A stretch of DNA of 64,000 bases from Ensifer adhaerens (GTDB lineage Bacteria; Pseudomonadota; Alphaproteobacteria; Rhizobiales; Rhizobiaceae): positions 1,932,501-1,996,500 of the forward strand of contig NZ_CP083350.1 in NCBI RefSeq assembly GCF_020035535.1, written 5' to 3'. Below, piece by piece: positions 8,022-26,110 of the stretch. A program made the translations under genes and the position numbers. Each line of letters begins with the position of its first letter. Position 1 is the first letter of the stretch. The notes beneath the pieces were generated by a model. The model did no database searches. It was not told where the DNA came from and saw only the letters and a program-made list of their open reading frames with translations.

Positions 8022-8033
8022 CTTCTTCAAAGG

Positions 8034-8999
8034 TCAGTTTCCAAGGCCAAGTTCGGCCAGCTGCTTGCATGTTCTCTGTTCAAGCGGCTTGCCGAAGTTT
8101 CCGGCATTTTCCTTCGTGATAATCGTCGCCTTCAGCACGAGACTTTCAGGAACAGCCTCTTTCTTGGCCAGCCGATCGATGATCTCGACCGCGCTGCAAC
8201 CCATCTGGAAGCCCGAGAACTCACTCGATGCGAGGAGGCGACCGGCGCTAACCGCCTGAACCCCGTCGATCGTTCCGTCCATGCTGACCGCTTGAGCTCC
8301 GCCTCGGCCCGCGGATTCCATGGCCTCGATAGCGCCGAGTGCCATGTTGTCGGAAGCGGCGATGATGCCGTCGATCTGCGGGAATTGCTGCATGAGATTT
8401 TCCATGACTGCGAGCGCCTGCAGACGCTGGTAGTTCGCGGCCTGCGACGCAAGCAACGTGATCCCCGGGTATTTCTTCAACGCTTCCTTGGCGCCAGCCA
8501 CGCGACCGTCACTGGTAGTGGATCCCTTGACGCCTTCGATGATGACGACGTTGCCCTTGCCGCCCAATTTCTCCGCCAGGAGGGTCGTGACTTCAAAACC
8601 AATCTGGTGATCGTCATAGACGACGTAGGAGGTGAAATTGCCCTCGCCTCTGTCGATAAAATTGATAATTGGGATACCGGCGCCGCTTACCTTGTCGACG
8701 GAAGGTTTCATGCCCTTGCGGTCAACAGGAACGAAGATCATGCCCAGTGGTTTCCGAGTTATTGCATCCTCGACCTGGGCGATTTGCTCCTGGAAATTGT
8801 TCGGCCTGGTCGGTGCATATTGAACGGTCGAGTAACCGAGCGATTTCGCGGCTAGAGTGGCGCCCGAACGCGCCTCCTCGAAGAAGGGGTCGACGTTGTT
8901 TTTAGTGAAGACGGCGATCTCGCCAGCCTTGCTATCCTGCGCGTGTGCGCCCGAGACAAAGGCTGTCAAAACCATAATCGCTGCAACTGCTCTTTTCAT
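8034..8999 (-). CDS. Sugar-type ABC transporter, periplasmic substrate-binding protein
   Basis: This is a 321-residue RbsB-like protein. The true start is ATG 8999 with GGGAGAGAAA just upstream, far inside a longer open frame. Residues 1-20 are a signal peptide ending in GAHA-Q. The mature part has the two-lobed type I fold, with EIAVFTKNNVDPFFEEA, NPVD-like FVPVDRKG, DGIIAASDNMALGA and AVSMDGTIDG segments that line the pocket in ribose, galactose and inositol binders. The ligand is probably a sugar, polyol or cyclitol. It is co-transcribed with two permeases and the ATPase. Confidence 0.92.
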   Translation of the reverse strand: MKRAVAAIMVLTAFVSGAHAQDSKAGEIAVFTKNNVDPFFEEARSGATLAAKSLGYSTVQYAPTRPNNFQEQIAQVEDAITRKPLGMIFVPVDRKGMKPSVDKVSGAGIPIINFIDRGEGNFTSYVVYDDHQIGFEVTTLLAEKLGGKGNVVIIEGVKGSTTSDGRVAGAKEALKKYPGITLLASQAANYQRLQALAVMENLMQQFPQIDGIIAASDNMALGAIEAMESAGRGGAQAVSMDGTIDGVQAVSAGRLLASSEFSGFQMGCSAVEIIDRLAKKEAVPESLVLKATIITKENAGNFGKPLEQRTCKQLAELGLGN

Positions 9000-23341: not shown

Positions 23342-23641
23342 CTATAGCCAACCCATGAGTTCTCGCTGGAGCAATGTGGAGAGGAGGAGAATCTGGTCCC
23401 TCTGGTTCTCATCAAAGCGGGACGTTTCGGCCGTTTGCCCGCCGTTGGAGAGAAACGTGCGGGCGATTTCGGAGCAATGATCCATTGCCGAGGGGTCATC
23501 GAAAGCCGATGAGGTGGCTATGATAGCGATCCGTTCGACGCCTTTAACCGCTAGGTTCCTCGCGATCTCGAGCGTGTAGGGCTTGAGCCAGCCCTTCTGA
23601 CTCGAAGGCGCCTGAAAGGAGGCAATCAGTTGATCATGGTT
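23342..23641 (-). pseudogene. Ferrochelatase-like gene, 3' half (disrupted by insertion)
   Basis: Read leftward, this fragment encodes NHDQLIASFQAPSSQKG, then WLKPYTLEIARNLAVKGVER and IAIIATSSAFDD, ending MGWL-TAG at 23342. This is the C-terminal third of the ferrochelatase fold (compare the family's SFQSRFG...EWLKPYT and GVKRVAV segments). It lacks the family's PGFxxDCLETLEE segment with its conserved Glu, having SSAFDDPSAMDHC instead. It is the continuation of 25288-25945; deleting the element plus one target duplication joins them in frame. Confidence 0.85.
23635..23641. repeat. Target-site duplication, left copy
   Basis: CATGGTT at 23635-23641 is repeated at 25288-25294, directly flanking the inverted repeats of the element. 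Confidence 0.85.
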
Positions 23642-23670
23642 GGCTATCCGGATTTTCGTGTGGATCCGCG
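23642..23670 (+). repeat. Left terminal inverted repeat
   Basis: Begins GGCTATCCGGATTTTCG and matches the inverted right end at 27 of 29 positions. Confidence 0.9.
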
Positions 23671-23673
23671 CTT

Positions 23674-25134
23674 TTACGCGACACGTCCACGTTGAGCAAA
23701 AGTCCGAACTGCTGCGTCCGACTTGTGAGATGCCAGCCGGAACAAGAGTCCCGGACGATGACGTCTACCAAGGCGGACGACCGCATGCCCACAGAACATT
23801 CTCGTTCCGTGGACATCGGAACCCAGAGCGCCGAGCGGCACGTCTGGGTGCGGGCGGCGGTAGCCAATCTTCGCCGCTTTGATTGTCCGATGGACGTCCT
23901 GCCATGAACCGAGTTCGACGGGCACCTTCCCATTCTTCCATAGACGGGAAACACACCCTTCCTCGAGAACCGGCAGGACGTCCTTCATTCCAGCCAGGCA
24001 GGCAATGCCACGCCTGGCGATCTCTGTTGCCGACGCGCAGGCGTCGGGGGCATCAAAGGCGAGGTTGCCGATGGTCGAGGAGTACCCCGCCCAGACCTCA
24101 AGCACTTCGATCCCGGCAAGACGGGCGCGACGCTGAAGCATCTGCACCAACACCGTCCTTGCCCAGTAGTTCAACAGCCTGTTGAGAGAACGACTCCTGC
24201 CGCTCGACCGCAACTTGCCAAGGCCTTTCTCCACAACGATGGTGCCGCAGCGATGTTTGCGTGCCATCGAGATGGCGCGGTCGCAGACCGCCGCCAGCGT
24301 CTCGCGCACAAGCTCCGCCGACGAGTCCTTGGGCATGTCGAGCTTCACCAGGGCGTGCTCCAGCAGACTCGTATCCTCGACCGACGACGGATCCTTTGTA
24401 TTCGCCGCCACCGCCAGGCCGATCCAGTTGGGATTGAGGTCGATGCCGAGGCAGCGGCCCTTGATCGGCACGACCGGGCGCCGCCGCTGCGGGTGGTTCG
24501 GCAGATCGGCGGGATCGAAGGTCACGCTCACATGCGTGTCGTTGATGGAGAAGCTGACGTTGACCCGGTCTGCTTCGGCCTTGTTTCCGCAAATCTCGGC
24601 CAATTGCCGCAGGATGATGCCGCGGTTGCCCGTCATGCGAGCCAGATGGAGAACCGCCGTGCGCGTCACTGTCTTTCCCGACCGACCGCCGCTCTCCTTG
24701 CGGCCGATCTTGACGACGACCGTCGTCTCGTCGATCAGATGGATGTTCTGGTTCCCGCGCGCCTTCTGGCGATCTCCAAAGCTGACAAACGGATGCAGTC
24801 TTCTGCGTTGCCATTCGTCCCGCGTGATCAGACCCTTGCGCCGGCGCTCGAACTCCGCTCGACCGCCGAAGATCGCCGTCCCGGCCGGACTGAGTTTTCG
24901 TTTCCACATGCCGAGCTTCGTCGCGCAGTGGATCGCCCAGCTGTCGAGCAGCCCTTCCTGGGCAAACCGCGCCTTCACCAGGTTGCGCAGGTTCATTTCC
25001 TTCGGCCTGGAGCCGTCGGCATTGAGCGCGTTTGCATAGGCTGTCCTGATGGCAGCCGACTGCACGCGCCGCAGATCGTCGAGGAACGAATGATGCTCGT
25101 CTGAACAGTGGTAGGGAACGGAGATGGTTTGCAA
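23674..25134 (-). CDS. tnpB: TnpB-like RuvC nuclease without zinc ribbon
   Basis: This is a 486-residue protein starting at TTG 25134 (no good ribosome site; no ATG nearby). The RuvC-like core is intact: GIDLNPNWIGLAV (Asp232), IVVEKGLGKLRS (Glu302) and DACASATEIARRG (Asp364). Between the second and third motifs, where typical TnpB has a CXXC-CXXC zinc ribbon, there is only EVWAGYSSTIGNLAF. About 110 residues follow the third motif, longer than standard TnpB. TnpB proteins are RNA-guided DNA nucleases of transposons; whether this branch is active is unknown. The stop lies only 3 bp from the left inverted repeat. Confidence 0.85.
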   Translation of the reverse strand: MQTISVPYHCSDEHHSFLDDLRRVQSAAIRTAYANALNADGSRPKEMNLRNLVKARFAQEGLLDSWAIHCATKLGMWKRKLSPAGTAIFGGRAEFERRRKGLITRDEWQRRRLHPFVSFGDRQKARGNQNIHLIDETTVVVKIGRKESGGRSGKTVTRTAVLHLARMTGNRGIILRQLAEICGNKAEADRVNVSFSINDTHVSVTFDPADLPNHPQRRRPVVPIKGRCLGIDLNPNWIGLAVAANTKDPSSVEDTSLLEHALVKLDMPKDSSAELVRETLAAVCDRAISMARKHRCGTIVVEKGLGKLRSSGRSRSLNRLLNYWARTVLVQMLQRRARLAGIEVLEVWAGYSSTIGNLAFDAPDACASATEIARRGIACLAGMKDVLPVLEEGCVSRLWKNGKVPVELGSWQDVHRTIKAAKIGYRRPHPDVPLGALGSDVHGTRMFCGHAVVRLGRRHRPGLLFRLASHKSDAAVRTFAQRGRVA

Positions 25135-25137
25135 GAC

Positions 25138-25163
25138 AGGAACATCGTTGGAGGGATGTTCCT
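25138..25163. repeat. Hairpin just upstream of tnpB-like start
   Basis: AGGAACATC (25138-25146) pairs with GATGTTCCT (25155-25163) around 8 nt. It begins 4 bp before the tnpB-like start codon. It may be a subterminal hairpin or sequester the start region. Confidence 0.6.
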
Positions 25164-25258
25164 ATTGACTGTCGAATCCTTGCGGCGGTCAAACGCCGGC
25201 GGAAATCGGACTACAACGTTGAGCTTCGACAGCGCTCATCAGTAACAAACAGAGGATT

Positions 25259-25287
25259 CGCGGTTCCACACGAAAATCCGAATAGCC
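25259..25287 (-). repeat. Right terminal inverted repeat
   Basis: Reads GGCTATTCGGATTTTCG on the minus strand from 25287; 27 of 29 positions match the left end. Confidence 0.9.
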
Positions 25288-25294
25288 CATGGTT
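25288..25294. repeat. Target-site duplication, right copy
   Basis: CATGGTT, identical to 23635-23641. Confidence 0.85.
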
Positions 25295-25945
25295 CAGCCC
25301 AAGATGAACGCAATGTACGTTGATCGTGTGATGGCATTGTTCAAAGTAGGGATCGCCATCGCTGATGGTCTCGATTGGCCGCCCGGGAAAGCATAGAACG
25401 AGTGCTTGCGACGAAGCGTTGCGATGGAAGCCCGCCTTGATTACGGATTTCGCCAACGTGTCGATGTAAGCGTCTTCTGCGTAGTAGGGGGCAAGCACCC
25501 GGATCGTTGGTTGCCGTTGTAGTCGCGCCAGCGCCCTGAATGCGGCACTGCAAATCCGGCCCGTTGTCGCATTGGAATACTGGGGATAAAGGGGCGCAAG
25601 CAGAATGCGATCGCAGCCTTGCCGCATCAGATCGATCATTGCCTGATCGAACGAGAGCGTTCCATGCAATAGGACGGAGCCGACGACGATTTCGGCGCTC
25701 GAGTTTCTCAGCATGCTGCTGTTGATACTCTCCTGGAACAAGGAGGAGATGCAACGAAGGTCGGCTGGAGCCGTGGACTCAGCTTTCGGTGGAGAACCCG
25801 CCTGCGGTTTCTCATTGCCCTCGAATCCTAGGGCAGCAAGCAGAATTCCCACTTTCCGATCGGAAGAATATCTGACCGTAGGCGAGTCCTTGAAGTGGGT
25901 AAGGATCTCGTGATTGCTCGTCAGCCCGTATCGACGCGTTGCCAT
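25288..25945 (-). pseudogene. Ferrochelatase-like gene, 5' part (disrupted by insertion)
   Basis: It starts at ATG 25945 behind GGAAGG. Recognisable ferrochelatase segments are KVGILLAALG, CDRILLAPLYPQYSNATTGR, IRVLAPYYAEDAYIDTLA and SDGDPYFEQCHHT. The catalytic His of the family's FHGxP motif is replaced: the protein has LCFPGRP with Pro187 there. The N-terminal domain is also about 60 residues shorter than usual. Joined to 23342-23634 the gene would encode 316 residues in frame. Even before the insertion it probably lacked chelatase activity. It lies just after the catalase gene on the same strand. Confidence 0.85.
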
Positions 25946-25966
25946 GACAACCTTCCAAAAAGCGTT

Positions 25967-26110
25967 GCCGGGGAGGGGATCCCCGACAACGCGTCGAGCG
26001 ATGCCGGGAGGGGGGATGCCCGACAACGCGGCAAGCGATGCCGGGGAGAGGATCCCCGACATCGCGGCGGGCGGAGCCGGGGAGGGGACCCCGACAACGC
26101 GGCAAGCGAT
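25967..26110. repeat. Four tandem repeats of 35-37 bp
   Basis: Units at 25967-26002, 26003-26039, 26040-26075 and 26076-26110 follow the pattern GCCGGGGAGGGGATCCCCGA then CAACGCGGCAAGCGAT. Most units contain the self-complementary GGGGATCCCC core. They fill the gap between catalase and the ferrochelatase-like gene. There are no unique spacers, so this is not a CRISPR array. Confidence 0.85.

What the first reader, a model, noticed from the sequence alone, without database searches (positions are those of the whole stretch)
23634..25295. TnpB-like nuclease gene carried by an element with inverted repeats and a target duplication
The element has 29-bp terminal inverted repeats (27 matches) and a CATGGTT duplication, and removing it with one copy of the duplication restores a continuous ferrochelatase-like frame. 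tnpB-like genes normally travel in IS200/IS605 or IS607 elements, which make no inverted repeats or duplications. Here the nuclease is the only cargo of what looks like a transposase-less element mobilised by a DDE enzyme. This would be an unusual vehicle for an RNA-guided nuclease.
Basis: partly seen in the sequence, partly recalled or inferred. Interest (0 to 1): 0.78.

Follow-up and report, generated by a model that had tools for sequence, protein, structure and literature searches.

The report
RNA-guided nuclease cassette with DDE-type ends
A gene related to the RNA-guided DNA cutters from which CRISPR enzymes arose sits alone in a small bacterial jumping cassette whose repeated end also appears to form the end of its guide RNA, an arrangement described before for eukaryotic relatives.

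Summary
Element 23642-25287 (1646 bp) has 29-nt terminal inverted repeats (TIRs, 27 matches), a 7-bp CATGGTT duplication, and interrupts a ferrochelatase-like gene. Its one long gene encodes a TnpB-related protein with the RuvC D-E-D residues kept in 22 of 22 aligned relatives. It is no one-off: the genome holds a second tip-to-tip copy, and 14 insertions of the family with readable 7-8-bp duplications were read in Rhizobiales, Methylobacterium and Acetobacter, in elements too short for a second large gene. The ends match ISL3-family elements that do encode a DDE transposase (20-22 of 24 nt; 8-bp duplications). No ISL3 transposase was found in this genome, so the cassette looks non-autonomous, perhaps stranded. 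Two findings go further. (1) The TIR downstream of tnpB belongs to a predicted ~150-nt RNA fold ending at the element tip; upstream TIRs and TIRs of tnpB-less elements show no such pairing. (2) All 14 insertions carry GAA at the same place and orientation, resembling a TnpB target motif, though two ends without recognisable tnpB carry it too. Best reading: a mobile insertion cassette moved in trans by an ISL3-type transposase, with TnpB and its TIR-ended RNA as retention device. Activity is untested.

The parts
23635..23641 (.). target-site duplication copy CATGGTT (downstream of tnpB)
   Evidence: read in sequence
25288..25294 (.). target-site duplication copy CATGGTT (upstream of tnpB)
   Evidence: read in sequence
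23642..23670 (-). 3' TIR (downstream of tnpB), ISL3-type tip
   Evidence: inverted repeat I1; pairs with the upstream strand in the predicted RNA
25259..25287 (+). 5' TIR (upstream of tnpB)
   Evidence: inverted repeat I1
23674..25134 (-). TnpB-related gene, 486 aa from TTG; RuvC residues D232, E302, D364
23642..23789 (-). predicted guide-RNA scaffold (omegaRNA/reRNA-like) overlapping the 3' end of tnpB and ending at the element tip
   Evidence: consensus fold and pair counts; covariance-model match 23642-23796, a sequence the model was built from
23342..23641 (-). 3' part of the interrupted ferrochelatase-like gene
   Evidence: joined frame, coordinates derived from it; hemH alignments
25295..26062 (-). 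5' part of the interrupted ferrochelatase-like gene, from the first ATG listed
   Evidence: Ferrochelatase PF00762 E=1e-23

Best explanation
A non-autonomous mobile insertion cassette with ISL3-type ends. A DDE transposase supplied in trans by an ISL3-family element would recognise the TIRs, insert the cassette at A-rich sites and make a 7-8-bp duplication. The only cargo is a TnpB-type RuvC nuclease. The transcript of its 3' end folds into a scaffold of about 150 nt whose last strand is the TIR itself, so the RNA ends at the element tip and the next bases, the duplication and the flanking host DNA, would serve as guide. The RNP would recognise empty copies of the insertion site next to a GAA motif and cut them, so that repair from the occupied copy keeps or restores the cassette. 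Shown here by sequence: architecture, recurrence, end family, duplications, conserved catalytic residues, a covarying predicted RNA fold that includes the TIR, an oriented GAA. Inferred: mobilisation by ISL3, RNA production, guide use, cutting, retention.
For: Second tip-to-tip copy in the genome. 14 TnpB insertions with readable 7-8-bp duplications (counted from flanks seen). Same end type around ISL3 transposase genes with 8-bp duplications. TnpB profiles TIGR01766 and NF040570 hit 20 and 19 of 22 aligned members at E up to 1. D232, E302, D364 invariant in 22 of 22. 3' TIR more paired with upstream RNA than shuffles: mean z +2.08, 18 of 18 positive, against -0.44 for 16 5' TIRs and -0.21 for 14 ends of tnpB-less elements. 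RNA fold: 92.8% of cells paired against 26-46% when slid; 18 cells changed on both sides against 6.9 in shuffles and covariation 0.221 against 0.167, 0 of 500 shuffles as high. GAA in gene orientation 14 of 14, in the opposite sense 2 of 14, tnpB-less elements 2 of 9. 30 of 120 listed family proteins end in [SP]TxKS[G/E], the TIR read in frame.
Against: No ISL3 transposase (PF01610) in this genome. Curated TnpB cut-offs are not reached (27.8 against 32 bits, 22.1 against 100). No Rfam match in 23500-25400. The fold overlaps coding sequence; the number of further pair types is not above shuffles (262 of 500), and the TIR-containing helices alone do not covary above shuffles. TIR pairing is weak in L023, L027, Acetobacter and Methylobacterium (z 0.47-1.44), and the RNA model finds nothing in either Acetobacter plasmid. 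The second full copy has no duplication. Two remnants in the genome lack GAA. Two ends with no recognisable tnpB beyond the TIR, L090 and L098, do carry GAA at -8, which speaks for a transposase preference. Acetobacter cassette ends match the window's at only 12 of 24 positions, so they would need another helper.
Confidence: 0.69

Rival explanations
1. The vehicle is as described, but the GAA motif and the RNA fold are by-products: the transposase itself has an oriented target preference, and the 3' complement of the TIR is an extra transposase-binding site in the DNA. TnpB would be passive cargo or act with a guide from elsewhere.
For: L090 and L098, ends without recognisable tnpB, have GAA at -8; both tnpB-less cassettes of L112 have GAA. 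Duplications of ISL3-ended elements are A-rich. The upstream TTCGGACTTT motif resembles the 5' TIR.
Against: Excess pairing is seen only at the tnpB 3' end, not at the 5' end with the same or nearly the same tip, nor in tnpB-less elements. A DNA-binding site would not explain the two-sided changes in the helix remote from the TIR (helix 3). GAA is in one orientation.
Confidence: 0.24
2. The element is a decayed autonomous ISL3 transposon in which tnpB replaced the transposase once, so the case is local debris, not a lineage.
For: No helper in the genome; several truncated copies.
Against: tnpB-only architecture in Rhizobium-type genomes, Bradyrhizobium, Methylobacterium and Acetobacter with diverged TIRs; five full copies with exact 8-bp duplications on one Acetobacter plasmid.
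Confidence: 0.04
3. Known Y1/serine-recombinase vehicle (IS200/IS605 or IS607) whose transposase was missed.
For: Some sources name members IS605 OrfB.
Against: TIRs and 7-8-bp duplications, which those families do not make (recalled); no room for a second large gene in 1.6 kb.
Confidence: 0.02

Closest known systems
Fanzor1 / Fanzor2* elements of eukaryotes and their viruses (e.g. the SfAV Fanzor1 element; PMC10711439, passages and section 27 read)
   Same: TIR/TSD transposon, in SfAV non-autonomous, encoding a TnpB relative; [quoted passage not shown]
   Different: Those are eukaryotic, and there the TSD is also predicted to be scaffold. Here bacterial, ISL3-type ends, a TnpB-related family without zinc-ribbon cysteines
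TnpB of IS200/IS605 and IS607 (recalled, with passages of PMC9956272)
   Same: RuvC nuclease of TnpB type, structured RNA at the 3' end of the gene ending at the element end (here predicted)
   Different: No Y1 or serine transposase; TIRs and target duplications; no conserved zinc-ribbon cysteine pair
Mobile insertion cassettes (MICs) with IS ends and passenger genes (term seen in the search listing; the IS231 example is recalled)
   Same: IS-type ends, target duplication, passenger gene and no transposase
   Different: ISL3-type ends; cargo is a TnpB-type nuclease whose predicted RNA uses the end
ISL3-family elements of ISStma11 type (label from the records)
   Same: End sequence 20 of 24 nt (22 of 24 for the E. 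faecium ISL3 element), 8-bp duplication, passenger genes
   Different: They carry the transposase; this does not

Membership tests
TnpB (RNA-guided nuclease) | RuvC D-E-D catalytic residues | tested here: met
   D232, E302, D364 invariant in 22 of 22; assignment of these residues by motif context is mine, no structure was available
TnpB (RNA-guided nuclease) | Match to curated TnpB profiles | tested here: inconclusive
   TIGR01766 E=2.7e-6, NF040570 E=7.6e-5 for the window protein, both under the curated cut-off
TnpB (RNA-guided nuclease) | Zinc-ribbon cysteines between RuvC-II and RuvC-III | tested here: not met
   no conserved cysteine pair between E302 and D364
TnpB (RNA-guided nuclease) | Structured guide RNA overlapping the gene's 3' end and ending at the element end | tested here: inconclusive
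   predicted with covariation; no RNA data
TnpB (RNA-guided nuclease) | Guide-directed cutting next to a TAM | not testable with these tools
   GAA is a candidate motif
IS200/IS605 or IS607 element | Y1 or serine transposase, no TIR, no TSD (recalled) | tested here: not met
   TIR and TSD present, one long gene that fills the element
ISL3 family | ISL3-type ends | tested here: met
   22/24 with the E. faecium and 20/24 with the Xanthomonas ISL3 element; other ISL3 ends 12-16/24
ISL3 family | 8-bp target duplication (recalled as typical; seen) | tested here: inconclusive
   8 bp in 10 of 14 TnpB insertions; 7 bp in 4, the window among them (flanks)
ISL3 family | DDE transposase PF01610 in the element | tested here: not met
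   none in the element, none in the genome
Mobile insertion cassette | IS-type ends, TSD, passenger gene, no transposase | tested here: met
Mobile insertion cassette | Helper element with the same ends acting in trans | tested here: inconclusive
   similar ends with ISL3 transposase in Enterococcus and Gammaproteobacteria; not found in this genome or the sampled relatives

The most novel reading that the evidence does not exclude
Bacteria have a lineage of RNA-guided nucleases that live in cut-and-paste (DDE) cassettes moved in trans, in which the transposase-binding end repeat doubles as the terminal helix of the guide-RNA scaffold, and a GAA target motif restricts surviving insertions to one orientation: a bacterial parallel, reached independently, to Fanzor in eukaryotic transposons.
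Probability: 0.5. Interest if true: 0.87.

Novelty: new variant of a known kind. Interest (0 to 1): 0.74.

Why it matters
TnpB is known as partner of transposases that excise without scar (Y1, serine; recalled). A TnpB lineage tied to a DDE-type vehicle with target duplications would show that RNA-guided retention also suits cut-and-paste elements, would give a bacterial counterpart of Fanzor elements, and makes testable how a nuclease whose RNA uses the transposon end passes from one transposase family to another. The proteins are compact (about 480 aa) and come with a predicted scaffold and a candidate target motif.

Tried and rejected
Looked for an autonomous partner. PF01610 in the own genome: 0 of 1. 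PF01610 in genomes or records behind loci: 5 of 12 searched, one more (L026) not held; apart from the E. faecium record, which had been fetched by its ends, the ones whose ends I looked at differ. ISStma11-type transposase at E<=1e-40 in 289 alphaproteobacterial genomes: 1 of 289, with ISPpu12-like ends (the name rests on recall and on labels). PF01610 at E<=1e-20 in 397 genomes of the order: 2 of 397, with other ends; weaker ISL3 matches were not counted there. TIR pattern: 1 of 16 genus genomes and 1 of 297 family genomes, the own genome each time, and 3 of 397 order genomes, the own one and two with a single one-mismatch hit. No relative in viral contigs by protein. No near match of the element in plasmids.

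The PDB sequence search gave only weak Cas12 matches, E 0.5-0.9. Rfam gave none in 23500-25400.

Covariation restricted to the TIR-containing helices was not above shuffles; only the longer fold was. A plain search for one strand complementary to the TIR gave 13 or fewer of 500 shuffles in 2 of 12 sequences and was unremarkable in the other 10; the ensemble measure was the informative one. It was chosen after seeing the folds.

Selections. One search used 18 3' ends and 16 5' ends; of the five full A. persici copies three were given (L118 and L121 left out). One search counted only insertions with a readable duplication, and accepted GAA at -9, -8 or -7. Left out there: the second own copy (3' flank GAA, 5' flank not), A. 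pasteurianus L115 (GAA at -9, no exact duplication), and single ends of family members: with GAA L013, L008, L134, L141, L151, L155, L161 and an extra end in L119; without L011, L014 and L159. Ends with the same TIR but no clear tnpB, also left out: L090, L098, L103, L105 with GAA at -8, L100 without. The control set is 9 tnpB-less elements from other hosts, so host and vehicle are confounded. L021 has one mismatch in its duplication; L029 matches over 7 bp.

Papers: PMC10711439 passages and section 27 read; PMC9956272 passages read; PMC3627910, PMC10278001 and the MIC papers only as search listings; the PNAS TnpB diversity paper is not held (recalled). That I saw no bacterial TnpB in a DDE-type TIR cassette in print rests on searches of an incomplete library; one search returned nothing at all, and of the listed papers only the two above were opened.
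Full report
What is there. The window lies in contig C2 of an 8.1-Mb three-contig genome; close named proteins come from Ensifer and Sinorhizobium. On the minus strand an ORF of 486 codons (23674-25134) fills an element bounded by 29-nt inverted repeats (23642-23670, 25259-25287; 27 of 29 match) and flanked by CATGGTT on both sides. The element is 1646 bp. Element plus one duplication is a multiple of three, and the joined flanks read as one 367-codon frame that aligns through the junction in one piece to hemH-annotated genes of Sinorhizobium and Ensifer at 29-31% identity; the ORF upstream of the insertion alone hits Pfam Ferrochelatase at 1e-23.

It is a mobile unit. The same genome has a second copy, 87% identical over exactly the element's length, and several truncated copies. 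The second copy has no duplication; its 3' flank starts GAACTCAT and its 5' flank does not match. The protein profile found 25 loci in genome contigs, 13 of them alphaproteobacterial (L021-L033) and 12 distant cyanobacterial. Of the 13, seven (L021-L027) are bounded by the same kind of end with a duplication, L029 (Methylobacterium) by a different inverted repeat with a 7-bp match, and five (L028, L030-L033) gave no readable pair. Duplications in gene orientation: L021 AACGATT (one mismatch), L022 AATGGGG, L023 GAACTTTC, L024 GAATGAAG, L025 GAACAAGT, L026 GAAAAATG, L027 AATCTATT, L029 AAAAAAT. One Acetobacter persici plasmid holds five full copies with diverged ends (GGCTCTCCTGCAAACGGGG... / GGCTATCCTGCATAACGGG...) and exact 8-bp duplications. 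Element lengths are 1.5-1.9 kb, so there is no room for a second large gene. The architecture is a lineage trait and not an accident of this window.

The protein. It hits TIGR01766 (IS200/IS605 TnpB-related) at 2.7e-6 and the guided TnpB model at 7.6e-5, both below curated cut-offs; 20 and 19 of 22 family members hit these models at E up to 1. The D of GIDLNP, the E of VVEKGLGKL and the D of APDACA are invariant in 22 of 22, as expected for a live RuvC site; no cysteine pair is conserved between E302 and D364. A distant cyanobacterial relative (L035) shows similar three motifs by eye. The profile search returned 221 proteins at E<=1e-10, 120 of them listed. Some sources already call members 'IS605 OrfB family transposase' or TnpB.

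Whose ends. A 30-nt end query hit 7 plasmid records weakly; one hit, E 0.4, lies exactly at the tip of an Enterococcus faecium element with TetR, GNAT and an annotated ISL3 transposase, whose other end is a related inverted repeat and whose duplication is AAAAAAGA. A query with that end led to Xanthomonas and Dyella plasmids, where related ends bound a mercury-resistance transposon with an 'ISStma11 family' ISL3 transposase and duplications CAATTGCT and ATAAAAAA. Over the outer 24 bases the window's 5' end matches the left ends of these at 22 and 20 positions; four other ISL3 ends match at 12-16, and the Acetobacter cassette's own end at 12. Such ends also bound tnpB-less, transposase-less cassettes: a NUDIX gene in Staphylococcus epidermidis, a Phd-family antitoxin plus a hypothetical gene in Bradyrhizobium, single genes in two IMG/VR contigs and a ~340-bp element in Aneurinibacillus. 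The vehicle thus behaves as a mobile insertion cassette with ISL3-type ends. No PF01610 transposase was found in the own genome, and none of the alphaproteobacterial ISL3 elements whose ends I looked at has these ends.

The RNA. The gene stops 3 bases before the TIR here, and in many relatives runs into it: 30 of 120 listed proteins end in [SP]TxKS[G/E], which is TCCACACGAAAATCCG(G/A)A-TAG read in frame, and the motif occurs 0 times elsewhere in 55,353 residues. Folding the last 130-150 nt repeatedly paired the TIR with a strand upstream. Tested against dinucleotide shuffles of the upstream part with the TIR held fixed, the 3' TIR is more paired than the shuffle mean in 18 of 18 ends (mean z 2.08), while 16 5' TIRs (mean -0.44) and 14 ends of tnpB-less elements (mean -0.21), some with the same tip letters, are not. 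The effect is weak in L023, L027, Acetobacter and Methylobacterium (z 0.47 to 1.44). A 12-sequence alignment gives a consensus of 37 pairs that begins at GGCATGC and closes with the last GCC of the element. 92.8% of cells pair, against 26-46% for slid versions; cells changed on both sides are 18 against 6.9 +/- 2.4 in shuffles, and covariation score 0.221 against 0.167 +/- 0.012, with 0 of 500 shuffles as high; the number of further pair types is not above shuffles. Relatedness and coding constraint can inflate such counts. Most of the two-sided changes lie in helix 3; the TIR-containing helices do not covary beyond shuffles. A covariance model of this region matches at element tips in 7 of 12 genomes or records, this genome included; all but a few of these matches are sequences the model was built from. 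An eighth has one marginal partial match, and four have none, among them both Acetobacter plasmids.

The target. All 14 TnpB insertions with a readable duplication have GAA at the start of the duplication or with its G just before it, in the orientation of the gene; in the other orientation 2 of 14; in 9 tnpB-less elements with related ends 2 (Fisher p 1.5e-4). Single ends of family members left out of that count: eight with GAA, three without. Against a TnpB-specific reading, two ends with no recognisable tnpB beyond the TIR (L090, L098) also have GAA at -8. A DDE transposase with near-symmetric ends has no obvious reason for an oriented motif, whereas a TnpB needs its motif on one side of the guide match, so I read GAA as a candidate TAM. 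This is an inference, and host and vehicle are confounded in the control.

How it most likely works. ISL3-type transposase in trans moves the cassette; TnpB and its TIR-ended RNA, guided by the flank, cut empty sites and promote retention through repair. The guide and retention steps are carried over from what is known of TnpB (recalled; the listing of PMC10278001 says TnpB likely maintains its transposon). The closest described parallel is eukaryotic: Fanzor1 and some Fanzor2 proteins live in TIR/TSD transposons, one of them non-autonomous with Fanzor as sole gene, and their TIRs and TSDs are predicted parts of the guide-RNA scaffold (PMC10711439). My searches showed no bacterial report of this arrangement, in a library that lacks most subscription papers.

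Novelty. Each piece is known in kind: TnpB, insertion cassettes, ISL3 ends, TIR-in-scaffold for Fanzor. The combination in bacteria, on the evidence here, is a new variant. In this genome the cassette may now be stranded for lack of a helper.

Noticed in passing
L113:5146-5709; L112:4361-5032 and 8033-8604; L109:5001-5827; L058:4001-5107: Transposase-less, single- or two-gene cassettes with ISL3-type ends and 7-8-bp duplications in viral contigs and plasmids (an XF1762-like gene by eye and recall, NUDIX, Phd antitoxin plus hypothetical): a cassette class beyond TnpB.
   Followed up: partly
L103:1501-1593 and L105 (end at 1523, minus strand): Two mini-derivatives join the 5' TIR directly to the GCATGCGGTC... 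stretch where the predicted RNA begins, dropping the nuclease gene; L103 is only 93 bp with both tips. Covariance-model matches are weak.
   Followed up: partly
L016:5088-5277 (own genome C2:2043087-2043276): A diverged single end and RNA-like region (32 bits) in the same genome, possibly an older relative of the cassette.
   Followed up: no
L060 / NZ_CP014688.1: Five full-length and several partial copies of the family on one Acetobacter persici plasmid, a convenient system for experiments.
   Followed up: partly
window 25966-26110: GC-rich, roughly 40-nt imperfect tandem repeats (GCCGGGGAGGGGATCCCCGACA-like), seen by eye, at the start of the interrupted ferrochelatase-like ORF.
   Followed up: no
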